This document shows positions 1,188 to 26,600 of a DNA stretch of 29,637 nt, piece after piece. Each line of letters opens with the position of its first letter. The stretch's first letter is position 1. The notes under the pieces are model-generated. The model was not told where the DNA came from, made no database searches, and saw nothing but the letters and a program-made list of their open reading frames with translations. The DNA comes from a virus, in IMG/VR virus record IMGVR_UViG_3300006749_000069, positions 1-29,637 of that record; one strand, 5' to 3'. A program made the translations under genes and the position numbers.

Positions 1188-1559
1188 TTATTTATCAGTA
1201 TTATTCTTCAGTAACTTTTGCAGTTCTGCAGTTGATCCAACAAATAAAGCATTATTGACTGTGGTTGGACCTTTATTAACTTTTTCTTCCTCAACATCTT
1301 TTAACTTTTGTTGAAGAGTCATTAGTTTATCTGTGGCATCAGCAACATTTTTAATTAACTGACCAGCAACCTCATATGCTCTTGGCATTTCACTTTCTTG
1401 AGCAAGTTCTAGAATACCATTGATTGCTTCTTGACCTTTTTCTATAATAGAGTATAGATTTCCTCTTGTATATTCATAATCTTTTTCTACATCATTTTTG
1501 ACAATATGAGCAGGTTTATCTTTACCTGGTGTAATGTCTATGATACTATCATCAGTCAT
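1188..1559 (-). CDS. 16: Terminase small subunit (gp16-like)
   Basis: This 123-residue protein matches the small terminase of marine T4-like phages in style and position. In T4, gp16 assembles as a ring and stimulates the gp17 motor-nuclease during headful packaging of concatemeric DNA. The central part (about residues 30-95) is predicted helical and coiled-coil, rich in Glu, Lys, Leu and Gln, as expected for the oligomerisation core. The ends are less ordered. It is shorter than T4 gp16 (164 aa), which is usual for the marine relatives as far as I recall. Its ATG overlaps the gp15 stop as ATGA, so translation is probably coupled. The large terminase gp17 is not in the window and would be expected beyond the left edge. 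The call rests on synteny and recognition of the sequence type; there is no catalytic motif to see. Confidence 0.8.
   Translation of the reverse strand: MTDDSIIDITPGKDKPAHIVKNDVEKDYEYTRGNLYSIIEKGQEAINGILELAQESEMPRAYEVAGQLIKNVADATDKLMTLQQKLKDVEEEKVNKGPTTVNNALFVGSTAELQKLLKNNTDK
1189..1196 (-). promoter_or_regulatory. Putative T4-type late promoter box for the coiled-coil gene
   Basis: The minus strand reads GATAAATA, one mismatch from the T4 late consensus TATAAATA. It overlaps the gp16 stop codon and lies 42 bases upstream of the ATG at 1146. That leader is longer than the 19-24 bases seen at the other boxes in this window. Confidence 0.5.
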
Positions 1560-2563
1560 AACAGTCCACCATCAAATCCAAAGTTATCACCAATATCAAT
1601 GAATCCTGCATCAGATGCTTCAATGCCAGAGACTGCTGCTCCAAGAACATGATTTGATGCTGTGGTTTTATCTTGTCCCCTGTCCACAGTTAAGTTATTA
1701 CCATTTACAGATTTAACAAACATTTCCTCATCACCAATAGTGATGTATTGTTTGGCAGTAATTACTGAACCATTTGAAACACTAATTATAGTTTCTGTGG
1801 CATCAACATCTTCAGCAAGTTCTGTAAGTACATTGCCTGTGTAGTTCTTAGTTGCTCTTGGTGCTACACTATATGAAACATCTCTACTATATGCTTGACC
1901 AGAAGCAGTTCTCTGACCAGATACGTAACCAATTTGTACTTTTTTAATAACATCACTTGAAACATCACTGATTGGTCCATATAGATTTGTCTTTGCAGAA
2001 AATCTTAGTGTGTAAACAAGTGCTCTTCTAGTATCAAAATTACCTTCATAATCATCTTCCATTGACACATTTTCAAGTTGAACAGGTACATTTACAACTT
2101 CTCTAAGTTCACCAAGAAGTTTAATTGGAAGTGTATATGATGGTTGAAAATATGGCAAAATCTGTTCAATAATTTGCAAAGCATCATCATTTAACTTTGT
2201 CATTATTGAAAGTTCAAATCCCATATTATATGGGACAGGCATAAAAACTTTTTTTGTTTTTGTTCCTGAATCAGTTACAGGATGAAATGCTTGTGTTTGA
2301 GTTGCTTTTCTTACAGGATCATATTGTAAATCAGTAAATTCAAATGACATTCTTGGAAGAGTCATTTGAACTGGTTTATTCAAATCTGCTTGTTGCTCCA
2401 GTCTTGCTAAAAACTTTTGAGTAGGTCCATATGCAAGTGGAACTTTAATGACACTGAAAGTATCATCATTAGCATCTTTTTTGTGGATCTCAATTCCGTT
2501 AAAGAGAGAACCAAATGCTATGATTACTGATCTAAAGATCTCATTGTAAAAATGCTCAAACAT
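1556..2563 (-). CDS. 15: Tail sheath stabiliser / tail completion protein (gp15-like)
   Basis: This 335-residue protein begins MFEHFYNEIFRSVIIAFGSL, the typical start of gp15 in T4-like phages. Conserved segments follow: an AYGPTQKFLARL segment, LPRMSFEF, and a region ending near TLRFSAKTNLYGP. In T4, gp15 forms a hexameric ring capping the top of the tail tube and sheath, and contacts gp14/gp13 when head and tail join. T4 gp15 is 272 aa. The extra length here is largely explained by a beta-rich insert at about residues 246-314 that carries an IGDEE...DRGQ...NHVLGAAV module. Similar modules occur in the two giant proteins of this window. The C-terminus (DNFGFDGGLL) is acidic. The gene starts a unit with its own late-type box and overlaps gp16 by four bases. 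No clear Shine-Dalgarno sequence is visible. Confidence 0.92.
   Translation of the reverse strand: MFEHFYNEIFRSVIIAFGSLFNGIEIHKKDANDDTFSVIKVPLAYGPTQKFLARLEQQADLNKPVQMTLPRMSFEFTDLQYDPVRKATQTQAFHPVTDSGTKTKKVFMPVPYNMGFELSIMTKLNDDALQIIEQILPYFQPSYTLPIKLLGELREVVNVPVQLENVSMEDDYEGNFDTRRALVYTLRFSAKTNLYGPISDVSSDVIKKVQIGYVSGQRTASGQAYSRDVSYSVAPRATKNYTGNVLTELAEDVDATETIISVSNGSVITAKQYITIGDEEMFVKSVNGNNLTVDRGQDKTTASNHVLGAAVSGIEASDAGFIDIGDNFGFDGGLL
1621..1826 (-). other. IGDEE/RGQ module inserted near the C-terminus of gp15
   Basis: The encoded segment has the pattern ITIGDEEMFVKSVNGNNLTV followed by DRGQDKTTASNH and GAAV. This is the pattern (I)xIGxExhxVxxxxGxxLxVxRGxxGTxAxxHxxGxxV familiar from many phage structural proteins. 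It lies outside the part of gp15 that aligns with T4 by motif and accounts for about 65-70 added residues. Related copies are at about 6480-6620, 17205-17365, 21835-21990 and 26220-26430. Confidence 0.6.
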
Positions 2564-2582: not shown

Positions 2583-2590
2583 TATTTATC
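2583..2590 (-). promoter_or_regulatory. Putative T4-type late promoter box for gp15-gp16
   Basis: The minus strand reads GATAAATA followed by AATAAAAAG, 19 bases before the gp15 ATG and overlapping the gp14 stop codon (TGATAAATA). It matches the T4 late consensus at seven of eight positions. Confidence 0.6.
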
Positions 2591-3974
2591 AAGGCATACC
2601 AAATGGATTTATTTTGGTAAAATCAATGATTGCATCTGCTTTTGTTTCAATAGTATCATTATCTGCAAATGGATCATTTAAATCATCTTTATTGACAAGT
2701 CTTACTGCAAATGATGCACCTGATTCTGACCCAACAATATTTTCACCAACAAGGAAAGCTCCATCAACAATTGATACCTCAAGAGTATTGTTTACAGCAT
2801 CAAATTCTTTAACCCTTGCAGTAGTGCCTGAACTTGAACCTGTAACAATTTCATTAAATATATAACTTCCTGTTGCTACACTTGCTGGAGGTGCAGAGAA
2901 AGTTAAAGTTGGAGTGCTTGTATAACCACTACCAGGATTGACTATGAATGCAGCAGTAACAATACCTGCAGAATTAATACGTCCTACACCAGTTGCAGTT
3001 ATACCTCCAATTGGTGGAGAGGAGAATGTTATAGTTGGATTTTCAATGTAACCAGAACCAGAGGCAGTAATCGTAATACCAGATATACTTGTATTTGTTG
3101 TTAATCCAGTGGTAGCAACTGCTCCATTACCCCCACCACCACTAATTACAATTAAAGGTGCAACTGTGTAACCAGAACCAACATTTGATAGTAATATGGA
3201 ATTAACAGAACCACCTTTTGTTCCATCACATCCAACAAAGTCATTAGTTATAGATGCTATACCAACAGCAGTTACTCCACCTGGAGGAGAAGAGGAAAAC
3301 CCAACTTTTGGTGCTGATGAATATCCACCACCCATATTTGTTATTATTGGAATAGTAATCCCACCAGTTGTTGTGGTTGCTGTTCCAGTTGCTGTAATTG
3401 CCTGACCAATTAAAGTCAGAGTCTGCATGTAACCTAGTTGTTCAATCTCATCATCAATTGTCTCTACACCAGTGTCAAGAACTTCATCTTCAAATCTGTA
3501 CAGTTGACATTTCAACGTATATACATAATTTTTTTGAAGTTGGTAGAATGGTTGTTCATGTTCAACATAATTAATCTCAAATAATCTATCACCTAGTGGG
3601 AAGAAAATTAAATCACCCTCTTTTGGTCTAGTAGACAACTCAATATTTGGTATATTTTTTATAAGTGGAGTAATATAATTCTCATATCTTTCTCTTGATA
3701 CAATCAGTGTTAGGTCATCTTGCTCTTCAATTCCAAATTTTGATAATAATGTTCCCTGACCACCATATCCTTCATAACTATCAAGATATGCTTCTATAGG
3801 ATATGCATTGTTAAATTCAGATTGAATTACTTCTCTAATAACAGTATTTTTAGTAACATATCTTCTAGGAATATAATATATTTCAATTCCATACATCTGC
3901 AACTGCTCGTTGACCAGACTCTGTATGAGATTTTGCTCTTGTTTAGAGTTGTTTAAAAAATACGGATTGAGCAT
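2589..3974 (-). CDS. 14: Neck protein / head completion (gp14-like)
   Basis: Residues 1-185 are a clear gp14-type neck protein. They start MLNPYFLNN, then run through MYGIEIYYIPRRYV, a glycine-rich YEGYGGQGTLLSKFGI segment, GDLIFFPLGDRLFEINYVEH and QPFYQLQKNYVYTLKCQLYRFEDE. In T4, gp14 and gp13 form the neck that seals the filled head and connects it to the tail. T4 gp14 is 256 aa; this one is 461. The added part (about residues 185-400) holds four GxGYxxxP glycine-rich repeats, then an SGTTARV...VGENIVGSESGASFAV segment. The C-terminus (DPFADNDTIETKADAI...FTKINPFGMP) looks like the conserved gp14 tail. So the extra material appears inserted into a conserved neck protein. The gene follows gp13 by four bases and has AGG about ten bases upstream of the ATG. 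Confidence 0.93.
   Translation of the reverse strand: MLNPYFLNNSKQEQNLIQSLVNEQLQMYGIEIYYIPRRYVTKNTVIREVIQSEFNNAYPIEAYLDSYEGYGGQGTLLSKFGIEEQDDLTLIVSRERYENYITPLIKNIPNIELSTRPKEGDLIFFPLGDRLFEINYVEHEQPFYQLQKNYVYTLKCQLYRFEDEVLDTGVETIDDEIEQLGYMQTLTLIGQAITATGTATTTTGGITIPIITNMGGGYSSAPKVGFSSSPPGGVTAVGIASITNDFVGCDGTKGGSVNSILLSNVGSGYTVAPLIVISGGGGNGAVATTGLTTNTSISGITITASGSGYIENPTITFSSPPIGGITATGVGRINSAGIVTAAFIVNPGSGYTSTPTLTFSAPPASVATGSYIFNEIVTGSSSGTTARVKEFDAVNNTLEVSIVDGAFLVGENIVGSESGASFAVRLVNKDDLNDPFADNDTIETKADAIIDFTKINPFGMP
2886..3334 (-). repeat. Four GxGYxxxP protein repeats inserted in gp14
   Basis: Four degenerate units are centred near 3310, 3155, 3030 and 2910, spaced about 120-150 bases. The encoded cores are GGGYSSAPKVGFSSSPPGG, VGSGYTVAPLIVISGGGG, GSGYIENPTITFSSPPIGG and PGSGYTSTPTLTFSAPP. 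The intervening segments are short Val/Thr/Ile-rich strands. The repeats are diverged at nucleotide level but obvious in protein. Confidence 0.85.
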
Positions 3975-4863: not shown

Positions 4864-4871
4864 TATTTAGT
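4864..4871 (-). promoter_or_regulatory. Putative late promoter box for gp13-gp14
   Basis: The minus strand reads ACTAAATA, two mismatches from TATAAATA, placed 21 bases upstream of the gp13 ATG and touching the upstream gene's stop codon. The position is equivalent to that of the stronger boxes at gp8, gp25 and gp15. Confidence 0.45.
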
Positions 4872-5254
4872 TATACGGAGAGACCTCCTTCTACTACTAC
4901 ATTTCCTGATACCATTTTGTAAACTGTAGATGCTGAACTTACAACATTAATGTCAAAATAATATCTACCTGGTTTCAAATCTTTTGTAATAGTATCTGTA
5001 AGTGAAATATTAAATTCACCAGCAGCAGCACTTGAGATACCACTAGTGAATGTGGTTATTCCTCCTGAAGATGATCCAATGGCAACACTTTTCTTTAATT
5101 TACCATGAACAGCATAACCAGATAAATCAAAAGCAGACTTATTTTCTTTATTAACTTTAAATGTAGATCTAAAGTCAGCACCTTCCAATATTGTGAGGTT
5201 TACACCATATGCAGTATTGGAGTCTGGATTAAAGGTGATTGTGTTGTTAGCCAT
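4871..5254 (-). CDS. Small beta-sandwich-like virion protein, unrecognised
   Basis: This 127-residue protein is Ser/Thr/Gly-rich with alternating hydrophobic strands. It starts MANNTITFNPDSNTAYGVNL, then has TILEGADFRSTFKV, a LSGYAVHGKLKKS segment, and ends GRYYFDINVVSSASTVYKMVSGNVVVEGG. The pattern (an early strand, a linear Asp/Phe-rich strand, then a GRYYFDI...Y.MVSGNVVV terminal hairpin) resembles the small Ig-like N-terminal domains of baseplate upper proteins (BppU-type). I infer this from the pattern only. Its start overlaps the preceding coiled-coil gene by eight bases, so the two are probably translated together. Position between the DUF4815-like giant protein and gp13 suggests a decoration or fibre part. 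Confidence 0.8.
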   Translation of the reverse strand: MANNTITFNPDSNTAYGVNLTILEGADFRSTFKVNKENKSAFDLSGYAVHGKLKKSVAIGSSSGGITTFTSGISSAAAGEFNISLTDTITKDLKPGRYYFDINVVSSASTVYKMVSGNVVVEGGLSV

Positions 5255-13042: not shown

Positions 13043-14599
13043 TTAGAATTGCAAAATGATTTTGACGTCTTCTTTTTGGGAAGTGGACCTGGTGACTGGG
13101 GGTCTATTATCTACGTAGACAATGTTTCCTGAATATTTTTTAGATTCTGGATTTGCAGTGCCCATGGCAAATTCTTGCCCAAGATTATATGTCTTATTAT
13201 TTATTACAGTGCTAATACCTGTAAATGAAGTGCTGATCTGCAATGTTGCTGATCCACCAATAATATTTACATTTCCACCTATATTTGATTTTGCATCACC
13301 ATCAAATAAAATATTTACAAATCCATAATCAGGACTGGGATTTTGTGAACCATCAGAATTAAATCCAACATTAGTTCTATCTTGCCAATATTTTAATACA
13401 CCAGTTATTTGATCATATGAAATAACTCTTCCAACTGCTGTTGAACCAAGTCCAACTGTCTGTGTAATTTCACTATCAGGAGTAAAAACTACTGAACTAT
13501 ATCCAGTGCCTGTTAGTCTCAATGCGTAAGTTGCTGCTGCTTTGTCTGAAGATAGAAGACTATTTGAACCAAACTGTTGTGGATTTTCAATAAGACCAAC
13601 TCTTGCAAATTGATTTCCTGTAATAAAATCAGGATTTTGAGTGTCATTATCATATCTTGAATATGTAAGGACATTTGATGCACCTAATTCAGTATAAATG
13701 TCATGTCCATGACCTCCAGGAGGAGGAATGATTACATTAAAAACTGGTGATGTTACTGCTGTTATACCTTTTTCTGTAAGGTCAATTGTTCCATAAGTAT
13801 ATCCTGAACCACCATTAGTAACAGCCACTGATTGAATTTTACTGTCAGCATTTACAACAACAGTTGCTTTGCCACCTTTTCCATCACCCTTAATGGTGAG
13901 ACCAGTATAAGTATTTGCATTTCCTAAACCAGCACCTCTATTTCTAACAGTGATAATTTTTAATTGCCCACTTGAGGCAGCATTTGCCTTAACTGTGGAA
14001 GTGTCAGTTGTATTTCCCCAATCATTAGGAACTGGAATATAATTTGTTGAGTCAAATTTTATAGCATCACCTGGTTTGATTGTATAAAGATATTTCCAAA
14101 TGTATCCATCACCACTTGAACCTGCTGCTCTAGGTTCTAAGTCAGTAAAGGTTGGTTCATCAAGTGAGGGACTTCCTTTGAAATTATTTTCAGGATTTGA
14201 ATTATTATACAGACAAATATATACTCTAAAATCACTGTTCATTACATAATAATTTGCACTGTATATGTTAAATGAACCAGATGGTTGTGAAGGATTTGAT
14301 CTTGAAATATCATTCCTCCACATATCATATATGCTACCAGATGACCAAGTATTTTTATTGACAACCTGAGTTACATCTCCACTACCTACCTTCTTTAAGG
14401 CAATCATTGTATCCCAATAGTCATTTGACTCATTTAAATTATCTTTTGGGGAGGGTGGAGTGCTATCCCAAGTAGATGAATAATCAGTGGCATTGGGTAG
14501 ACCAATGAACGTATAATATGAATTGCTGCTAGATTGAACTCCAGCAACAAAGTTTTTAGCATTTAATATACGAAGTTGATCAGTTATAATCGCAGCCAT
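13043..14599 (-). CDS. 8: Baseplate wedge subunit (gp8-like)
   Basis: This 518-residue protein starts MAAIITDQLRILNAKNFVAG, with SYYTFIGLPNATDY, DYWDTMIALKKV, YDMWRNDISRSNPSQPSGS, YYVMNSDFRVYICLYNNSNP, PTFTDLEPR and GDGYIWKYLYTIKPGDAIKF. This is the conserved gp8 core of marine T4-like phages. The C-terminal part has PPPGGHGHDIYTELGA, RVGLIENPQQFG, SGNIVYVDNRPPV and ends KEDVKIILQF, also typical. In T4, gp8 dimerises and joins gp10, gp7 and gp6 in the wedge. T4 gp8 is 334 aa; the extra residues include a glycine-rich insert at about 203-285 with two GxG(Y/L)-type units (NRGAGLGNANTY, NGGSGYTYGTI). The gene has the best late promoter match, 20 bases upstream, and heads a four-gene unit. The leader has no obvious Shine-Dalgarno sequence. 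Confidence 0.94.
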   Translation of the reverse strand: MAAIITDQLRILNAKNFVAGVQSSSNSYYTFIGLPNATDYSSTWDSTPPSPKDNLNESNDYWDTMIALKKVGSGDVTQVVNKNTWSSGSIYDMWRNDISRSNPSQPSGSFNIYSANYYVMNSDFRVYICLYNNSNPENNFKGSPSLDEPTFTDLEPRAAGSSGDGYIWKYLYTIKPGDAIKFDSTNYIPVPNDWGNTTDTSTVKANAASSGQLKIITVRNRGAGLGNANTYTGLTIKGDGKGGKATVVVNADSKIQSVAVTNGGSGYTYGTIDLTEKGITAVTSPVFNVIIPPPGGHGHDIYTELGASNVLTYSRYDNDTQNPDFITGNQFARVGLIENPQQFGSNSLLSSDKAAATYALRLTGTGYSSVVFTPDSEITQTVGLGSTAVGRVISYDQITGVLKYWQDRTNVGFNSDGSQNPSPDYGFVNILFDGDAKSNIGGNVNIIGGSATLQISTSFTGISTVINNKTYNLGQEFAMGTANPESKKYSGNIVYVDNRPPVTRSTSQKEDVKIILQF

Positions 14600-14632: not shown

Positions 14633-17600
14633 TTAAGTGTAGTTTTTAAATTTGAGGGATGCAGTTCTTTGAACCAAACCAGATGTTGAAATTCCAATAA
14701 CTCCATCATTGTTGTATGAGTCAAAAGATTTGGTGTTAGTTCTGTCCTCAAATACAATTTTGCCCCAACTGTAATTGCCCATAAAGGGTCTTTGAGTGTG
14801 ATTAATGCCCGAACCATATGTATCAACATCACATTTAATCCTTCTTATTGCTGTTACAATACCAGAAGAATTTTCAGTTGTAACTGTTATCATCTGAGTT
14901 GATGCAGAATCAACTTGATATACACAATCAAGGAAAGTTTTTGCTACTCCAACATTGGATGCAAATGTGCTACCAATTGATAGGAAAGTATCACTCACAA
15001 CAATAAAATCACCTGTGCTAATTCCACTTACTGTCTGTGCAGTTCCAACAATACTTGCATCTCTCATAAATGAATCAGTTGGAATATAAACATCAAAGAA
15101 CAATTGTTTTTGTGATCCAACATTTGTGCTTCCAACACCTACAATTACACCATAATCACCTGAATAAGAATTAACATTAATTGTTTCTTTTGTTATTCTT
15201 GGTGGTTGGATCAAAACCAGAGGTTGTGTGGAGTAATTAGTTCCTCCATTAGTAATGGTAACACTTGTAACTACTCCTGCTGTCACAGAGGCAGTAGCAG
15301 TAGCCTGAGTGCCTAATGTACCAATACCTGCAATAGTGACTGTGGGAGTAAAATCATATCCCAATCCACCATCAGTAACAGATACTGTTGATATAGTTCC
15401 TCCAGTAGAAACAGTAGCAGTAGCAACAGCACCCTCAAATCCATTTTGTGAGATTAGTGTTACTGAGTTTTGGAATGCAGTATTAAATGATTCATTTGCA
15501 ACATTAAACAATGGTCTCACACTATCTACATATGCCTCAGTTGAATTTATTCCAACTGGAGTTGTTAGATAAGCAGCAGGGAAAATATTAGGTTCATATT
15601 TTGGTCTATCTTTGCCAATAAATTGACCATTTATTTTTTTGTCAATTGTTTGCCTACACCAAGTTAAAGGTCTCTTAACAGTTTCATCATCAGTAAGTCC
15701 AGGTCCAGGATATGCATTTGTTTTTACAGCATCAATTGTTGTAATTCCTGTTACAACCCTCTTATTCTGATCAAAAATTATACCTTGATCATCATCAATA
15801 TTAGGATTCAATTCAACAGTATCACCTATCTTAATTGTCTCTAAAATATCTTTAAATACCACATCAGTATCACCTGCTCCTTTGTAGAACAAAATTCTTG
15901 ATGTGTCACCTTCTGGAATACCTGAACCACGTCCTTTAGGTGCTTCATTAAATGTAATCTGACTTCCACCTTCAAAGAAGTAAGATTCTCCAGGAGTTTG
16001 AAGAATATCATTTATAAAGACAAAGAGGGTTTGATCAACTTCAATAGAGGAATCTCTAGCTGCTCTAATAGAGATTGGTTCATTCTCAAGTGTTAATGGG
16101 AATACTTTCTTTTGTCCATCAAATTTGTCATCTATTCTATCAAATACTTGGAATTCACCTGGAGAATATCCATGGAAAATATCACTATAGGTATCTTGAA
16201 TTGAAATTTGGAATTCACTAAATGCAGTAGATGTATCTGTTGGAATGCCAGTGGCACCACCTACAGGCACTGTAAGTATTTCACCTCTCTTGAATGCGTA
16301 TCCAAAATTATTAATTTCAAACTCAATAATACTAGATCCTTGACCAACTTTAACATTTATACTTGCTTGAGTTCCAATACCTGATGAAGATGAAGAATAA
16401 ACAAGAGGAATATTTGAATAACTAAGTGGTTCATCAATTACAACAACAGGTGGATTAGAACTTGTAAATCCAACTCCTCCATTTGTAATATTAAAACCTG
16501 TAACATGACCATTATTAATTGTTGCAGTACCAACATGAGTTAAGATAGGTAAAACACCATTATATGTCTGCACACCCACATTGTATGCTGTTACAACACC
16601 TGTCCTATATCCTGAACCACTATTACCAATACTAATTGATTGAACAGTGCCTCCAGCAGATATAACAGCAGTTCCACCTGCACTAACAAGAGGTTGATAT
16701 CCAGAACCTTCAAATGAACCAACAGAAACAATCAATCCCCCAATTGGAAGACCCCCAAGATTCTGGTCATGACCAGTGGGTGTACCAGAATTTGTGTTAA
16801 ATCTTATAGTAGTTACACCAGCACTAGCACTTTCAAAGTTTTGATATTCACCAATTTCATTTATATTTGCACCTTGTGGCGTTTGAAATATATTATTAAC
16901 AAGTATTAAAGAATTACTGGAAATACCACTTACATTTTGATTATCTGATTTTAAAATAAATTCACTTGTAATACCAGTAAATTGATGTGATATATCATCA
17001 AAAACAAAGTTATTATTATATGTTTCAGTTGTTGATGATGTAACTCCTCTCTTTGTTAAAACTCTACCACTAAAAGTAGAACTTGTAGTGATTCCTGTAA
17101 AATCTCTTTCATCAGGTGGATTTGTTGTAGATCCAATAGGTACATTACCAAATGGAGCGTTTACAAAATTCAGTGTATTATTTGTAACTGAAAAATTACC
17201 AACAAATTTCTCAATAGTTGCACCAATACTATGAATGCCAATTTGAGTCCCAAGAATAGGTCTCTGGACAAACATAGTTGTTCCAGAACCAATAATAGAT
17301 GTTACTCTCATGAATTCATCATCAATTTTAATAATATCATTAGATGATATTGATGTTATTCCACTTGTAGCAAACTGTGTTTGGAATATAACATCTTGAG
17401 ATAAAGTAGCAGCAATACCAGTTTTAGCAATTGGTGCTTGAATCATATTGTCAATTGACACAACCATTTTACTTGTTTGCTTGGTTGATGTGATAAAGTG
17501 TGAATTACCAACTCCAACACCATTAAACTGAATAAAGGATGGATTTACTGCTTGTGCATCAGTTGGACTAGTTGCAAATCCAATCAAGGCATCATTTACT

Positions 17601-20600
17601 TTAATTGCAAATAAATCAGTTGGTAGTAAAGAAGTTGAACCAACACTACCACCAAAATCAGTTGTAACTATTCCAATTCTTTGATCAGTTCCAGTAACAA
17701 CATATTTGATTGCCTCACCACTTTGGAAGAAGTGATTAGGTAAACTGATTTGATTTGTTGTTGTATTAACAACAGTTGTTGATGAACCATCAAATTGCCT
17801 TTCAAAAATTGGATCACCTTTGTGTGTTAAATTAAAATTAGTTCTGACAGAGTTTCTTGTACCAAAATAATTACCTGTTTGTGCTTTAAAGTATCCATCA
17901 TCAAGATCAATCTTATTATCAGTAACATCTGGGAAGATTTCTCTAAGATCAACAAAGAAAGACTTTACTTCAACAGCAATTCCTGGATTGGGTGTATAAG
18001 TAATCTGCACTAAATCCCCAGTTGTTGTTATACCAACTGTTCCAAGAGATGAATCAGTTTCTACAATTCCATATGGTGTGATTCCCTGTGTTGGAATTGT
18101 AAGTGAGTTTATCACTCCTAATTCAAACATTTCATGTTTGTTATTTGCAGTATCCTCTACAGTGATAACTTGATAAGATGCGCTGTATTTTTCAGAAATA
18201 GATCTTGTATCATAACTTGAAACTACATGTGCAGTAGGAGAACCAGAGGAGGCAATTGAAGTATAAGCACTACCAATTCTAGCAGTGTTCATTGTTGTAA
18301 TACCAGGAGAACTAGTCCCTCTAACAGTATTAACTATTTGACTATATGAAGTTGCTGCAATACCAGCATTTGGATGGAACTTAAGAAGAATATTAGATCC
18401 ACTGATTGCAGCACTGTAAGTTCCTATACCACCACCATATGAGATATCTGTATTTTCATCAATGTTATTATATTCAACAAAAGAAACATCACTACCATTG
18501 TGAATAATATTAAGTTCTGCAAAATGATATTCATCACCAGTAACTAAAAGATTCATAACTTTTAGTGATCTGAAACTTGTTCCCACAGAAACAATATTAG
18601 TGGTTGTTGCAGTTGCAACATTAACTTCTTGACTTTCATAGTGAACAATATCACCAAATGAAGTTATTGCAACACCACTTGCTGTAGGTTCAAAGGCAAA
18701 TGAGAATGATGAGACAAAATAATTATTATTCAAAAATTTATTGGGATGGAATACAAAATTCCATTCAGTATCAGATACATTAACATCAAAGAACCCTAAA
18801 TCAGGGAAAGTATATAAGTTTGCATAACTTGTCATATATGCAAAAGCATCATCATCAACTACAGCAGTTGTAATTTGGAACTGCCTTTCATCTGTAAATG
18901 TTGTATCTTGAACAAGGAACAATGATTTAACAAACTTTACGCCAGGTTCAAAACTAGATATATTAGAAAAAGCTTCTGGTCTAACTGTGCTGTTAAAAAG
19001 ATGACTTATGTTATCAACACTTAAAACTCTATTTCCTTGTGATTCAAAAAAGTCAGTTAGAACAACATTTTCTAAGAAAATTGTATCAGAAAATCTTTCA
19101 CCATTAACATTGTAAATATTTTCCTTTGCAATATCAAAATCATACACACAATTTAAATCACCCTCTCCAATACAATCAACAATAAATGACAATTCAGAAT
19201 CATTAACAAATGGTGTTAGATTACTCTCAGATTGACTTGTTATAACTAAATCTGAGAATTTTTTAAATCCTGCTGTATGGTTTAGTGATCCAACAGTATT
19301 ATCCCATTTATCAAATGGAACTGGTGATTTAAGTGCATATGAAAATCTCTGGTAGTAATCATTATCTGGCATTCTTTGGAGACTGTCATTTAATACACCA
19401 ATATCATCTATCCAACCATAATTAATTGTTGTTCCAGCACCAGTTTTTACATCTGCAATAAAGTCCCATTTCTTAACAACAATTCCTCTTGTCTTAGAAG
19501 AATCTGCTGTAACAATATCACCAATTGATAAATCATTTGATGTTTTAATTTTAAGAATATCTGTATCTTGATTGTAGTCCTCTACAATACCAGAACTTGA
19601 GTTCCAACTTACAGATTCATCATTAAGGAATTTATTTTTTCCTAATATTGGTTCAAATATTGGTAGTTGTGATTCTGCAATTACTCTTGCAGAGTTAAGT
19701 GATATTACATTACCAAGAATTTCATTCTGACTAAGATTATCTTTCATTGTATATTCAACATATGCACCTGAACCACCAGCATTAGTTTTTACACCAACAG
19801 TTTCAAATAATTTGTGTTTGTATTGTTCAGAATTGTATCCTTTACCAGTTGTTCCAACACCAATGTTTATACCTTCAACATATACATTATTTCCAATTGA
19901 GAAAGGATATTCATCATTACTATTAAATTGATTAGTAAGATTTAATCTGACTGTAGTTCCTGTTACTGCAATACTTCCAATTTCAAATCCATTAGAATTT
20001 TTAGTTGCTATAATTCTGGGACTTATTGGATAGAATCCTTTAGAGTTAGAAACAATTTCTACATTTGTATCACCTAATTCATAATTTAAAACACAATCTA
20101 CAATTTCATCAGTATATCCATCTCTTACTACAAGAGTTGCAGGGACAAGATAATCTTTTCCTGATGTGGTAATACCTATTCTTTCAAATGATGCAAGTGG
20201 ATTTACCTCAACAATTTCTGGAATATTTGCAGTTGGTTTGAGAGTTTTATCAGTAGGATAGTTCCAACCAATATTATTAGATTGAAACTTTTGATTTTGA
20301 ATTACACCAATAGATTTTGACTCAGCAAAAAGAATAGCATCAGAACCAATGTCACTTTTAATTGATGATATTCCAGGTAGCGTTTTATATCCATAGTTAT
20401 TATCAACTAAATCAACATTTTTTATAGAACCAAATGCAGTTTTTGATGTAGTTGTGTATTCAGGTTCTGCAGTTGTCCTATTGTAACTTGAAATGGGAGA
20501 TGTGTTGTCAAGATCAAAATTAAAAGTTGTAGTTCCAATTCCTGTAATTGAGAATGAACCATCTATTAATGATTTAGATTTAAATATTGTATTGTTAGAA

Positions 20601-23600
20601 ACAACATCATCATCAACTACTAATTTTTTATTTTGTGAGACGAATGATTCATTAACATTACTAAATTTATAATAAAGAGTTGATGGTGTATCTTTTATAT
20701 CAATTGTGAGTTGTCCGTCTGTTCCAACAACACCTGATGTCTTTACATTAAAATCATCATTTTCATTAGAAGTTAGATATTGATTAATAAACAATGAATC
20801 AGTAAAGATCTCTACTTTAAATGCAGGATACTTTATTGAATTAGAAATAAATGATAATGATTCATCTGACAAATCAAATTTTATATTTGAAAATGCAGGT
20901 ACACTTGGATTGATTTTTGATATAGTGCCAATGCCAGCACTAGTAATATTTACAAAGTTTGGTGAAATTTTATTCAGTTCAAATTTATCTTCAACAAGTT
21001 TTAATGTTGTTGGAGAATCCATATAAACATAATACATTTTTTCATTAGTTAAACCACCAGAGGGTGAATTTGATGAATGAATTACTTTATCTCCAGTTTT
21101 AAAAACATTTTCAACAACATCAATTGCATTTGTAGTAGTATTAACACCAGATGCTGCAAATGTTTGAGGATCAAATACTATTCTTCTGTTAAAGTCATTA
21201 TATCTGACATCAATAGTGGTTTCATTTTTTGCATTCAATGAGAAAATAACATTATCATCTTTTCTAAGTCCATGAGAACTAGCAGTTGATACAGTTACAT
21301 CAGTCCTCTGAGCAGTTCCTTTTACAACATCATCAAAGTTAGTAACTAAACTATGATACGCACCAGTTCCAACTCCAGTAAAATACAATAAACCAACTGT
21401 GTTATCAATAATTCCAACATAACCTGATGTAGTTAATCCAACTTTAGTAGATGATAATCCAATTAAATTATCATTAAAAGGAGCTACAAAAAGTGTTGAG
21501 AACTTGCTTAATGAGGTTTTTGCAATTCCAGTTCTTCCAGTCCAAACTTCTATTGAATCACCAGTGTTTGTATTATAAGTTACAGTATCATTGACTTTTA
21601 ATTTATGATTAGGAATAAACAATTGTTGTTCTGGCACAAATATATTTGTGATACCTGCTCCTGGATTTGAGAAGACAATAGTCTTTCCTGCACCAACAGT
21701 TGTCTCACTTCCAATCCCTAATGCTTCATTTGGATCAAAATATAATTCTGTATTAGTTTTTAAAATTTTAGTGGTTTTAATTGCTCCAACATTAATTAAG
21801 AATGATCTAGAATCTTGGAAAAGTTTTACATTTCCAGTGTGAGCAGCACCAGTTGTTCCTTCTTGCGCTCTTAAAACTCTTACTCTATTATTAAGTGGAT
21901 CACTATTCAGAACTTTTATTTTTTCAGATTCAATATTAATAATATCATTGGGTCTCATAATTGGATATTGGAAAGCACCACCTACTTCAAAATATGTAAC
22001 AATACCAGTTACTGATGAAGACTCTACATTATTAAGAAGAATGTAAGATCCAGTATTAACACCAACATTATAATATTGATCTAATCCTGGAAAATAATTA
22101 GATAAACCAGAAATTTTTAATCTAGTATTATCTTTTAAATTATGAGGTGCAGTCATAAACCCAACAAATTTATTAAAAGCACCTGCGTTCAAGAATTCAA
22201 TATCACTAAATGAGGTGGTATCAATGTTAACAAAATCAACTTGTTTGCCACCAATTTTATTAATAACACCTCTTGCTGTTTTACCAAATGTATCACCCTT
22301 AAAAACAACTTTGTCATTAATTTTATAATTTGAACCACCAGTGAATACACCAACAGAGTCCACACTACCTGTTGAAACGCTAGTTATTTCAATAACTTGT
22401 TCTTTAATATTATTTGAATTAAAGATATAGTCATAACCACCAAATATAGAATTAATTTTATATGGTGTTGTAATTCTCCTCCAATTATTTTTGACTAAAT
22501 CATAATCAACATGATTGGATGTTTTTTTATAATTGAAAATATTTTCCTTATGTTGAAATGTATTACCAATTAAGTATGGGAATTGTGGTTTTTTGAAATT
22601 TTTAAATGGACCTGTGCTTTCAGAGGTTTCTGAAATAGTTGAGAAATAAACAAATCTACCATTTGGATAATCAGGTGTTACACAAAATCTTCCATTTGAT
22701 TCATTTAAGTCACCAGAATCAGTAAATTGATAATCATTAACAAAGAAACCAAGAGGATACAAGTTTAAAGGAGGTCTATTAGATGAAATGACTTGTTCAT
22801 AACCACTTACCATCCTTCTTACAACACCACCATCTGGCCTATCATATCCATATGGACCATAAATTGGAGATCCATCATAAGCCCAACCAATAATTGGAGA
22901 GTGATATTTAGATTCAATCTCTATACCACCTAATTGTTTTAAGTCTGGGTGCTGATATTGAATTACACCATTTGATTTTTTGCCATATACTGATGTCCTA
23001 ATATTTCTAGGAGAATATAGATGTGCGATTTGAGTTGTCCCATCAAGTGTACCATTAGTAATAATACAATCATCATCAGTTAAATTATTAAATTTTTGCT
23101 CAAATTTATTAATTACCCATTGGTTTATGTTGGCAGAAATAGAACCATCATTTCCTGCAGGAATAATGGTAATATTAGAATCATTTTTATATTCAATTCC
23201 GCCAGATACAACAATAACAGACACAATTGAACCATTTGAAATAATAGGTGTTAATTTACAATACCTACCATCAGAAACAATTAAATCTGGTGGTGAATTA
23301 TATTCACTACCACCATTATTAATAATAACTTCTACTATTGATCCATTTACAATAATTGGAGTAAGTTGTGCATTTTTACCACTGTTTAAAGTGACAGATG
23401 GTTTTCTATCAAAGTTAAGTATTTCAGATGAACCATAACCAACACCTTCATTGTTTACATCTGCACTTGTAATACTACCTCTAATAATAGGTTGTAATGT
23501 GCAATCTATATTCTGTCCAAAAGACGTATTAACCCCAACTCTCCCAGAAACTGTTACTGTAATGGGTTTATAATTGAAACACCCATCTCCTACTTTTGTA

Positions 23601-26600
23601 ATATCAACTATGATATTGTTATCAATATAATATCTTTTTTCTAAAGAACCAGTCCCTAATTGATAAAGATTAAAATTGTCATCATCTATTTTTCCAACAT
23701 AATAATCAGTTTCAGAAGTAATTCCAGTTATAGAAGTTCCTTTTGGAGTGTATTGAATAATTTCATTAGTATTATAACCATGATTTTTAATTGTAAATCT
23801 ATTCAGTGATGTACTGATTCCACTTGAAACAATTGTTCTTTCTTGATTTTTGTATTCAGAACCACTATCTGAAATAATGATATTGCTTACAACTTTTTTT
23901 CTTTCAACTGTAGAGAATACTTGTGTGCCATTACCAACAGATGTAAGATTAACTGTGTTGATGCCAGAATTTGCATCATCAAATGAAGAGAATAATTTTA
24001 TCCTTGTACCATCAATAACTTTAGCAAAATAAACTTGATTAGTTCCTAGACCAACAACTGGATTTTTTGTGGTATTGTATGTTACTTGCTCAATATCTCT
24101 TAAATTGTGAAAAGTTGAGAATCCTATGATATCATTTGTAAGATCCACACCACCATCAAGATTGTTAAAAACAATACCTGCTTCAAATGGGATAGAATGA
24201 TCAACATCAATTAAATTAACTTCTGCTTTTGCTGGAGTTTTAGGACTACCTCCATCAATAGTTACAACAGGAGTTTCAAGATAATCAAAACCCTTATTGA
24301 TAATTCTCAATTCATCAACTGATCCAGAAACTGATACTGATCCTGTAGCATCAGTTCCAGATCCATCAGTAACATTAATTACAGGAGGATTAATTACATC
24401 ATAATTTTTACCAGGACTTGTTATTTCAAATGATTTTAATGCGCCATAAAAAATAACATCAGATGATTTATAGTTGTCTATTTCTACACCATTAATTAAT
24501 ATACCAGTTTTTCCAGGATTTGTTGTAAATGAACCTGCCTCTTGAATTGGTTCATCAATTTCTCTGTAAATTTTTTGACCAGAAAGTGGTTGTTCAAAAA
24601 ATGGATAGTAAGTAAATTTATTATCTGTTACAGTTCCTTCAGGAACTAAGAATTTATTATTATATAAATCTGATTTACTTTTTGACAACTTAATAGAAAA
24701 AGCACTTTCTCTCTTTACAAAATAAACACCCTCTTCTAGATTGCTAAAACCATCAATAGTTGTATCAACAAAAATTTGTGCATCAGAGGAACTAGATGTA
24801 GTAGTTACCTTTTTGTTGTAGTAAACAGAATCACCATTATATAAACCATGATCCTGACCATTAGTAATTTTTAAAATATCAAAATTTGCTGAACCACTAA
24901 ACAAAAATGTTTTATTATCACTTCTAATTTCATCATTATAATTTGGAACACTATTAGATGCTATTAAATATTTGCCATTATTTTTGTATGCATTAAGGAC
25001 ATTTGCATTTATACTGTCAATAGATAATTTTTCTGAATTACCTTTAAGAGTTTGATTTTCCAGTGTAAATGCATTACTTAAAGTGTTAGTTGGAATTGAT
25101 GTTGTTAACTTTACATTTAAATTTTTATTTGAATTAATAGATGTTACTTTGCCAAATTTAATTGCATTTAAGTTTACATCAGTTACCTCAACACTATATC
25201 CTACCACTAAATTGTGATCTTCAAAAAATTCAATTGTGTATATGTTACTGCTTGGATTGGTAAGTGATATAGATTTAATATTAAGTTTAGATTTTACATT
25301 ATAAAACCAATCAGATTTAATTGTATTATCTTCTACACCAATAGTCTTTAAACTAATTCTATCTCCAACACTTAATCCAAAATTTTCTCCATCATATTCA
25401 ATTTCTTGTAGAGTAGAAAGAATTCTTACTTTTATCTGTTCATCTGCTGCAATGTTTGCAAATGTAAAATCATTCTTTCTAACATCAACTCCTTTTGTGA
25501 AAGTTGATGTTGTTGTAGTTAATCCAATAAATTGAGTTAGATTCTTATCAGTGTAGTTTGTGATAAACTCATTACCATTATCATCAATAAGTGAAAGAGA
25601 ACCTGATGACTCAAAATCTATAGTAGAATCAACATCTATTATTGTTGATCCAATACTTACGTTATTGATAAGAATTGTTTTTGAATTTGGCTCAAATTTT
25701 CCAAATATTGTTCCACTCACATCAATATCACGCTGATATCCAGTATCAATTGAAATTTGATAAAAATCACCATCTACATTTAGTTTTTCAACTTTTGTTA
25801 CTGTGCCTCTTGAGTTAGTTGAGTTTTGAAATATTGTTCTATTCTTGAGATTAAGAGGATCACCAACATATTTTTCTACAACATAATCTTGACTGACAAC
25901 ATAATTTGCATCAGAAGGTCTAATTAGAAAATTATTTGGTTTAATAATATCTACATCAACACCATAAATTGCTTTAAACAAAATTTTAAATGATTCATCT
26001 GTGCCTTTTGATTTGTAAAAACTATCAGCACCAATAATAAAATTCTTTTTATTTAATTTTGAAGCAAGAGTTCTATTTTCAAATCCTGGAACAATTTGTG
26101 TCTTCAACTTTGTGAAGAATTCTTGTAAGAAAAGAACGCTCAGATTTTTAACAGTAGCACCTGTTTTATGTGTTGCAGGTAAAGTAGAAGTAAATGTTTG
26201 TTTATCTGGTATAAGTGTATTAATATATTGGGTAACACCACTAAAACCTCTTACACAACCTTCTAATGTGGTTGCAGTTTTACTGCTATATTTTATTATT
26301 TCATCATCTATTTGAATTAGACCATTCTTTTCAGGGAATTGATATGTAAAATTAGTATCAGCAGAAAGAGTAATGGTTGTTGAAACTGCACTGAGATCAG
26401 CACCCAATAATGCCTCAGTCTTTAGATTTGTAAGTTCATCAACTTTTACATATTGATCAAGATTTTCAATAAGGTCAAGGGATCCACCTTGTGTTTCTTG
26501 AGAAATATAATACTCTTCTAAGAAATCTACAAGTAAAGGAAAATCATCCTGTACATAGGAAGGAATCTGGGATGATAATACATCCTGAATTTGTACTCTA

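What the first reader, a model, noticed from the sequence alone, without database searches (positions are those of the whole stretch)
2886..3334. Glycine-rich GxGYxxxP repeats inserted into conserved neck protein gp14
gp14 is normally a compact neck protein. Here four repeats and flanking strands add about 200 residues between its N-terminal core and its C-terminal tail. The repeats probably protrude from the neck, where whiskers are found in T4. No wac (fibritin) gene is seen between gp8 and gp13.
Basis: partly seen in the sequence, partly recalled or inferred. Interest (0 to 1): 0.55.

Follow-up and report, generated by a model that had tools for sequence, protein, structure and literature searches.

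The report
Phage neck protein with swappable modules
In marine relatives of phage T4, the protein that closes the virus neck carries an extra barrel with repeats in one of its loops, and close relatives swap these repeats for quite different modules, even a propeller-like domain, which suggests that the neck is a mounting point for outward-facing parts.

Summary
The gp14 gene (2589-3974, minus strand, 461 aa) has a T4-type neck core (1-176), about 180 residues with four GxGYxxxP repeats, and a conserved C-terminal arm. None of 1000 shuffles gives one such repeat. T4 gp14 lacks the region. It is common in Kyanoviridae, not unique to this phage.

New here: (1) The repeats sit in a loop of an extra small barrel that T4 lacks. 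(2) Two loops are used: loop A here (usually four repeats), loop B in the S-RIM2 group (two repeats). (3) They behave as plug-in sites: near-identical gp14s differ by a FG-GAP propeller (L222/L195, core 97%) or a ~370-residue repeat cassette (L134/L145, core 98%). (4) The insert evolves faster than the core but under purifying selection. (5) T4-type whiskers are missing: no wac in 11 of 11 complete relatives, and gp13 lacks the fibritin-binding domain.

Best reading: outward-facing accessory modules at the neck-sheath junction, probably touching retracted tail fibres or the cell surface. Exposure is inferred from insertion tolerance; binding is unproven; they are not whisker homologues. New variant of a known kind.

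The parts
2589..3974 (-). gp14 (head closure Hc2, neck protein), 461 aa
   Evidence: PF11649 E 2.5e-33; phrog_460 E 1.4e-130
3447..3974 (-). N-terminal T4-type neck core, residues 1-176
   Evidence: Pfam residues 1-174; PDB 9mkb/9lu4 residues 2-164; structure match to 9lu4_M Z 12.7
3405..3434 (-). first strand of the carrier barrel, residues 181-190
   Evidence: strand in both models; in all 50 rows the aligned range starts at tail residue 1-6 and ends at 241-257 with only 55-76 residues aligned
2871..3404 (-). loop-A insert, residues 191-368, holding the four repeats
3246..3344 (-). repeat unit 1, residues 211-243 (GGGYSSAP)
   Evidence: 22.6 bits
3093..3209 (-). repeat unit 2, residues 256-294 (GSGYTVAP)
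   Evidence: 48.5 bits
2964..3089 (-). repeat unit 3, residues 296-337 (GSGYIENP)
   Evidence: 47.0 bits
2886..2960 (-). repeat unit 4, residues 339-363 (GSGYTSTP)
   Evidence: 24.9 bits
2685..2870 (-). rest of the carrier barrel, residues 369-430 (two F..GE.v.G.tSGa halves)
   Evidence: alignment with repeat-free gp14 of P-SSM4 and S-SZBM1; fold
2592..2684 (-). C-terminal arm, residues 431-461, ends NPFGMP
   Evidence: weak homology to the T4 gp14 C-arm, which binds gp15 in T4 (PMC12270204)
3979..4842 (-). gp13 (adaptor Ad2); lacks the T4 fibritin-binding domain III
   Evidence: phrog_211 E 1.2e-47
1556..2563 (-). gp15 (tail sheath stabiliser), partner of the gp14 C-arm in T4; has a C-terminal extension (residues ~241-335)
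   Evidence: PF16724 E 1.6e-83, residues 4-249

Best explanation
Kyanoviridae gp14 is a T4-type neck closure protein with an added small beta-barrel between its core and its C-terminal arm. Two loops of that barrel are insertion sites. In this phage loop A holds four GxGYxxxP repeats. The barrel anchors the insert next to gp15 at the neck-sheath junction, and the insert faces outward without touching the channel seal. Each virion would carry six copies (gp14 is a hexamer in T4). The modules are exchanged and lengthened by recombination between phages. They most likely make contacts outside the neck: docking retracted tail fibres, as whiskers and gp18 domain I do in T4, or weak attachment to the cell surface. 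Shown: the domain order, the two loops, the clean insertions, the faster evolution, the absence of wac and of gp13 domain III in relatives and window. Inferred: outward orientation, hexamer, binding.
For: Core plus insert plus C-arm. Repeats are real. Tail-only model confident (mean pLDDT 88.9, most repeat blocks 94-97) and all beta; in all 50 VIA rows the ends of the tail, not its middle, form a barrel-like match. Size classes in 352 distinct complete gp14s: 0, 2, 4 and up to 10 repeats. Loop A versus loop B changes once on the core tree, whereas four-repeat versus long changes at least 16 times with 27 long rows; 12 of 27 long forms have a four-repeat gp14 as nearest core. Empty/filled pairs: L195/L222 core 97.1% and 93.5% over the shared 201 residues of tail; L145/L134 core 97.7%, tail 307 against 677; window/L095 core 94.9%, tail 285 against 660. 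FG-GAP_2 E 1.4e-74 and 1.9e-69 in L222 and L175. A ~345-residue cassette shared by six gp14s is more alike than the tail before it in 15 of 15 pairs, and than the core in 6 of 15. dN/dS of the insert 0.13-0.51 against 0.03-0.12 for the core in 8 pairs.
Against: No structure or electron microscopy of a Kyanoviridae neck was found, and no complex could be modelled. The barrel and gp18 resemblances are weak (Z 5.2-5.9; Z 5.9; profile probability 8%). Foldseek finds no PDB match at E <= 0.001 for the tail. Some Kyanoviridae do without repeats (P-SSM4, S-SZBM1, S-CREM2), so the insert is dispensable in the family. In cyanophage A-1(L), which has real neck fibres, the distal carbohydrate-binding module did not bind its host (PMC10966104, passages). 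dS values are near saturation in most pairs, so the dN/dS values are rough.
Confidence: 0.55

Rival explanations
1. Neck-mounted adhesin: the inserts are receptor- or glycan-binding modules that hold the phage to the cyanobacterial envelope, and they are swapped because hosts change their surface.
For: Propeller and laminin-G-like modules are common in adhesion proteins (recalled). FG-GAP relatives lie in virion structural and baseplate proteins of marine phages. Laminin_G-like scores in L434 (PF13385 E 7.5e-4) and L140 (PF02210 E 3e-4), both below Pfam's cut-off. Frequent exchange.
Against: Two of four suspected lectin-like modules have no such Pfam match (L428, L437). The window itself holds only plain repeats. 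A-1(L) neck-fibre module does not bind its host. dN/dS stays under 1.
Confidence: 0.25
2. Functional stand-in for whiskers: the repeats dock the retracted long tail fibres, the role of fibritin and gp18 domain I in T4.
For: No wac and no gp13 domain III. gp18 domain I protrudes and binds retracted long tail fibres in T4 (PMC3004832, passages) and resembles the repeats weakly in fold and in register.
Against: T4 whiskers sit on gp13, not gp14. Relatives without repeats also lack wac (P-SSM4, S-SZBM1, S-CREM2). Resemblance to gp18 is not significant.
Confidence: 0.2
3. Structural brace: the repeats pack on gp15 or the first sheath ring and strengthen the neck, without any outside partner.
For: The C-arm next to the barrel binds gp15 in T4. 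gp15 of this phage also has an extra C-terminal module.
Against: A brace should keep its size and sequence; instead the insert is the fastest part and can be replaced by unrelated modules while core and barrel stay near-identical.
Confidence: 0.2
4. Neutral cargo: mobile repeat cassettes that spread among virion genes and are merely tolerated.
For: The same repeats or barrel occur in large virion genes of 11 of 11 Kyanoviridae genomes searched (6-20 matches each, gp14 included), none in T4.
Against: Purifying selection (dN/dS 0.13-0.51); frames kept open in 410 complete gp14s; glycines and P of the repeats invariant or nearly so in 64 tails.
Confidence: 0.08

Closest known systems
T4 gp14 (head closure Hc2, PF11649)
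   Same: Core fold and sequence (E 1.1e-29; Z 12.7), gene order 13-14-15-16, weakly similar C-terminal arm
   Different: T4 has neither the barrel nor the repeats; 256 against 461 aa
gp14 of Prochlorococcus phage P-TIM68 and other Kyanoviridae (S-B43, S-SM2, P-SSM2)
   Same: Full-length match with repeats in the same loop; P-TIM68 65% identity over 100%
   Different: Annotated only as neck protein; insert sequence and length differ
Fibritin (Wac) whiskers of T4
   Same: Both would be fibrous or protruding parts at the neck
   Different: Coiled-coil trimers of a separate gene bound to gp13; the insert is beta and part of gp14
T4 gp18 domain I (protruding sheath domain, residues 98-188)
   Same: Outward-facing insertion domain; one structural alignment of 74 residues at 2.6 A, 19% identity; GxNY motifs in register
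   Different: Z 5.9 and profile probability 8% do not establish homology; the repeat profile itself does not score gp18
A-1(L) neck fibres (gp82/gp81/gp80)
   Same: Appendages on a cyanophage neck
   Different: Separate trimeric proteins on a pentadecameric ring (PMC10966104, passages)

Membership tests
Head closure Hc2 / T4_neck-protein (PF11649) | N-terminal neck core matches the family over its curated cut-off | tested here: met
   116.1 bits against cut-off 25, residues 1-174; phrog_460 and phrog_679 head closure Hc2
Head closure Hc2 / T4_neck-protein (PF11649) | Gene lies between gp13 and gp15 | tested here: met
   gp16, gp15, gp14, gp13 in order on the minus strand
Head closure Hc2 / T4_neck-protein (PF11649) | C-terminal arm that binds gp15 | tested here: inconclusive
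   28 columns, E 1.8e-4, probability 49%; binding itself not tested
Head closure Hc2 / T4_neck-protein (PF11649) | Hexameric ring closing the channel | not testable with these tools
   single-chain prediction only
Fibritin neck whisker (Wac) | Matches fibritin families phrog_1056 or phrog_9687 | tested here: not met
   gp14 has no such hit among 12 PHROG families; 0 of 11 Kyanoviridae genomes, T4 positive
Fibritin neck whisker (Wac) | Segmented coiled coil | tested here: not met
   insert predicted as strands only, pLDDT mostly 94-97
Fibritin neck whisker (Wac) | Anchored on gp13 domain III | tested here: not met
   window gp13 has 19 residues between anchors where T4 has 62
T4 gp18 domain I fold | Six-stranded protruding barrel, related sequence | tested here: inconclusive
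   Z 5.9, 74 residues, 2.6 A, 19% identity; hhalign probability 8%; not among the 50 rows for the tail alone
EF-Tu/eIF2-gamma domain 3-like barrel (carrier barrel) | Fold match to a solved barrel | tested here: inconclusive
   Z 5.2-5.9 over 55-76 residues; Z 8.2 over 77 residues to 9f4a_A0, a Klebsiella phage KP1 baseplate chain
FG-GAP beta-propeller (relatives only, not the window) | Several FG-GAP_2 repeats over the curated cut-off | tested here: met
   L222 7 stretches, 246.5 bits; L175 6 stretches, 230.1 bits; cut-off 23. L223 not scanned, same tail length and near-identical start
Laminin G / concanavalin-like lectin (relatives only) | Pfam match over the cut-off | tested here: not met
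   L434 20.1 bits (cut-off 27.6), L140 21.7 (cut-off 22.9), L428 and L437 no such hit

The most novel reading that the evidence does not exclude
The gp14 hexamer of marine T4-like phages is a six-fold neck-mounted display platform: two loops of an added barrel take interchangeable binding modules (repeat stacks, propellers, lectin-like folds), a second adhesion apparatus besides the tail fibres that replaced whiskers and diversifies by cassette exchange with other virion genes.
Probability: 0.3. Interest if true: 0.75.

Novelty: new variant of a known kind. Interest (0 to 1): 0.55.

Why it matters
Neck closure proteins are treated as conserved plumbing. If gp14 of abundant marine phages is a plug-in site for surface modules, then host contact or fibre handling is partly set at the neck, and comparative genomics has been overlooking a fast-changing virion part inside a 'core' gene. 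The empty/filled pairs (L195/L222, L145/L134) make this directly testable. It also offers an answer to what, if anything, stands in for whiskers in phages that lack wac.

Tried and rejected
Whisker homology: rejected. In one search the fibritin profile also rang in one control genome, Haloferax volcanii, so weak hits of that profile mean little; rang in none.

Uniqueness of the insert: rejected; full-length relatives in P-TIM68, S-B43, S-SM2, P-SSM2 and others.

Known fold for the repeats: not found. Profile search of the tail against PDB sequences gave only E 0.22 and 0.45, host cell factor chains, not believed. Foldseek on the tail gave nothing at E <= 0.001 in the PDB; in BFVD 47 matches at E <= 0.001, mostly large marine-phage structural proteins with low TM-scores. 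A fold missing from these lists is not excluded.

gp18 domain I as a homologue: left open, see above. Laminin-G modules in L428 and L437, suspected by eye: not confirmed. NCBIfam: no family.

The full-length model has a poor core (pTM 0.46), so only its tail was used. The repeat profile at E < 0.01 found units in two window proteins only, gp14 and the 3992-aa protein; units seen by eye in gp8 and the 2523-aa protein were not scored.

Limits: contig sets were the best 80 per query, so class frequencies are not population frequencies. 29 of 439 gp14s were dropped as cut or partial, and 58 identical ones merged. The short-tail class of 21 holds T4, 17 T4-like contigs, L363 and L364, and L236, whose frame ends early. 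Classes A and B were assigned by a motif rule, and the propeller class by length. FastTree counts may be inflated by tree error.

Papers: passages of PMC12270204 (a preprint); passages of PMC10966104; passages of PMC3004832; passages of PMC10665884; passages of PMC3797505; passages of PMC4362835, PMC3037559, PMC7029224. The rest are listings. No paper on gp14 inserts was found in searches; only open-licence PMC papers are held.

Full report
What is there. The window is a 29,637-base virus record from IMG/VR, a fragment. On the minus strand it encodes gp25, gp6, a 3992-aa protein, gp8, a 2523-aa protein, two small proteins, gp13, gp14, gp15 and gp16. gp14 (2589-3974) is 461 aa. Residues 1-174 match the T4 neck family (E 2.5e-33) and solved T4 gp14 (residues 2-164, E 1.1e-29). 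The closest named relative is P-TIM68 (65% over its length).

The repeats are real. Four units match a 42-position profile at 22.6, 48.5, 47.0 and 24.9 bits; no shuffle of 1000 reaches 20 bits. They cover window 2886-3344, nearly the coordinates given. A profile without the window's units still finds all four above the best shuffle.

Anatomy. T4 gp14 goes from its core straight to a C-terminal arm. The 11 named Kyanoviridae gp14s aligned have in between a domain of about 70 residues built of two halves of the kind F..GE.v.G.tSGa. P-SSM4 and S-SZBM1 have this domain and no repeats; S-CREM2 has a divergent version (its barrel and arm columns match the tail profile at E 4.8e-6). In the window, residues 181-190 and 369-430 correspond to it and the repeats lie between (loop A). 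In S-RIM2, S-CAM4 and ACG-2014d two repeats lie one strand later (loop B). The tail-only AlphaFold2 model (64 sequences, mean pLDDT 88.9) is all strands apart from one C-terminal helix. In all 50 structural alignments listed, 55-76 residues from the two ends of the tail (1-13 and about 200-255) are matched and span the whole insert, so the ends form the barrel. Those Z-scores (5.2-5.9) are too low to name the fold; a full-length-model match to a Klebsiella phage KP1 baseplate chain reaches Z 8.2 over 77 residues. The last 31 residues resemble the T4 C-arm (E 1.8e-4, probability 49%); two contigs, L363 and L364, have this ending and no barrel, as expected if barrel and repeats are insertions.

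Survey. From 440 loci and the window, 439 gp14s were found, 410 complete and 352 distinct. By length after the core: 21 at 80 aa or less (no repeats), 13 at 81-180 (none), 56 at 181-215 (2 repeats in 52), 1 at 216-265, 231 at 266-335 (4 repeats in 212, 3 in 15, 2 in 2, 5 in 2), 30 above 335 (2-10 repeats plus other material). The set is biased towards the queries. On the tree of cores, loop A versus loop B changes once (314 rows), while four-repeat versus long forms change at least 16 times (258 rows, 27 long).

Plug-in behaviour. L222 and L195 have cores 97.1% identical and tails 93.5% identical over the 201 shared residues, but L222 has a FG-GAP propeller of about 350 residues in loop B (E 1.4e-74, 7 repeats). 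L175 has another (E 1.9e-69); L223 looks the same but was not scanned. L134 and L145 have cores 97.7% identical, yet tails of 677 and 307 residues, the extra ~370 lying inside repeat 3. The window and L095 have cores 94.9% identical, gp13 93% and gp15 92.5% (part), and tails of 285 and 660. A cassette of 344-349 residues occurs in six gp14s; it is more alike than the tail before it in 15 of 15 pairs, than the tail behind it in 13 of 15, and than the core in 6 of 15, as expected of transfer as a unit. L140 and L434 hold laminin-G-like stretches below Pfam's cut-off; L428 and L437 are not confirmed.

Evolution. In eight pairs with the window, dN/dS of the insert is 0.13-0.51 against 0.03-0.12 for the core: a faster but constrained part. 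Most dS values are near or beyond 1, so these are rough.

Wider use. The tail profile, which holds repeats and barrel, matches 6-20 places in each of 11 Kyanoviridae genomes, gp14 included, many in very large frames, and none in T4. The propeller has relatives in 18 phage records, in features called structural, baseplate, TolB or FG-GAP protein; none of those listed is called a neck protein. So gp14 draws on a common pool of virion modules.

Whiskers. In T4 fibritin binds gp13 domain III (190-239) and the gp14 C-arm binds gp15 (PMC12270204, passages). The window's gp13 has 19 residues between two anchors where T4 has 62. The fibritin families match 0 of 11 complete Kyanoviridae genomes and do match T4. 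tblastn with Wac hits 1428 phage records; Synechococcus is not among the ten commonest names, though 28 further names are not shown. So T4-type whiskers are absent, but the gp14 insert is no homologue of them.

How it most likely works. The core does the T4 job: it joins gp13 and seals the channel. The arm holds gp15. The barrel sits between them, and its loops tolerate very large, unrelated folds while core, barrel and neighbours stay nearly unchanged; that is hard to reconcile with buried loops. Six copies would ring the neck-sheath junction. The T4 parallel for such outward domains is gp18 domain I, an insertion that protrudes and binds retracted fibres (PMC3004832, passages); a weak fold and sequence resemblance exists. 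Contact with fibres or with the cell surface is therefore the best guess, not a result.

Known or new. The gp14 family is known, and accessory beta-domains on phage virions are a known theme (recalled). That gp14 is a two-site module carrier in marine T4-like phages was not found in the library searches. Pelagimyophages have a host-recognition island between the VrlC gene and gp14 (PMC7029224, passages), so the neighbourhood is already known as variable, upstream of gp14 rather than within it.

Noticed in passing
window 1559-1843 (gp15 residues 241-335): gp15 carries a C-terminal extension of about 70-80 residues found in some relatives (P-TIM68, S-B43, S-SM2, P-SSM4, S-CAM9) and missing in others (S-RIM2, S-SZBM1, T4); a second module at the same junction.
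   Followed up: partly
window 14633-26611 (3992-aa protein): Five further GxGY-type units at residues 729-789, 3371-3394 and 3739-3802.
   Followed up: partly
window 13790-13999 (gp8 residues 201-270): gp8 matches the gp14 family phrog_460 at E 0.0047 through a GxGY-like stretch.
   Followed up: no
L085 1871-2992 (S-CAM9 gp13): gp13 of S-CAM9 is 373 aa against 287 in the window and has its own internal insertion.
   Followed up: no
window 4871-5254 (127-aa protein): Small protein between the 2523-aa protein and gp13 matches phrog_3304, L-shaped tail fibre assembly (E 1.9e-14), and phrog_1084 of unknown function.
   Followed up: no
L236: A gp14 frame of the S-RIM2 group ends 43 residues after the core, in a different reading; either a sequencing error or a broken gene.
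   Followed up: partly
L437 and L439: The longest gp14s seen, 1109 aa each, with 8 and 9 repeats.
   Followed up: partly
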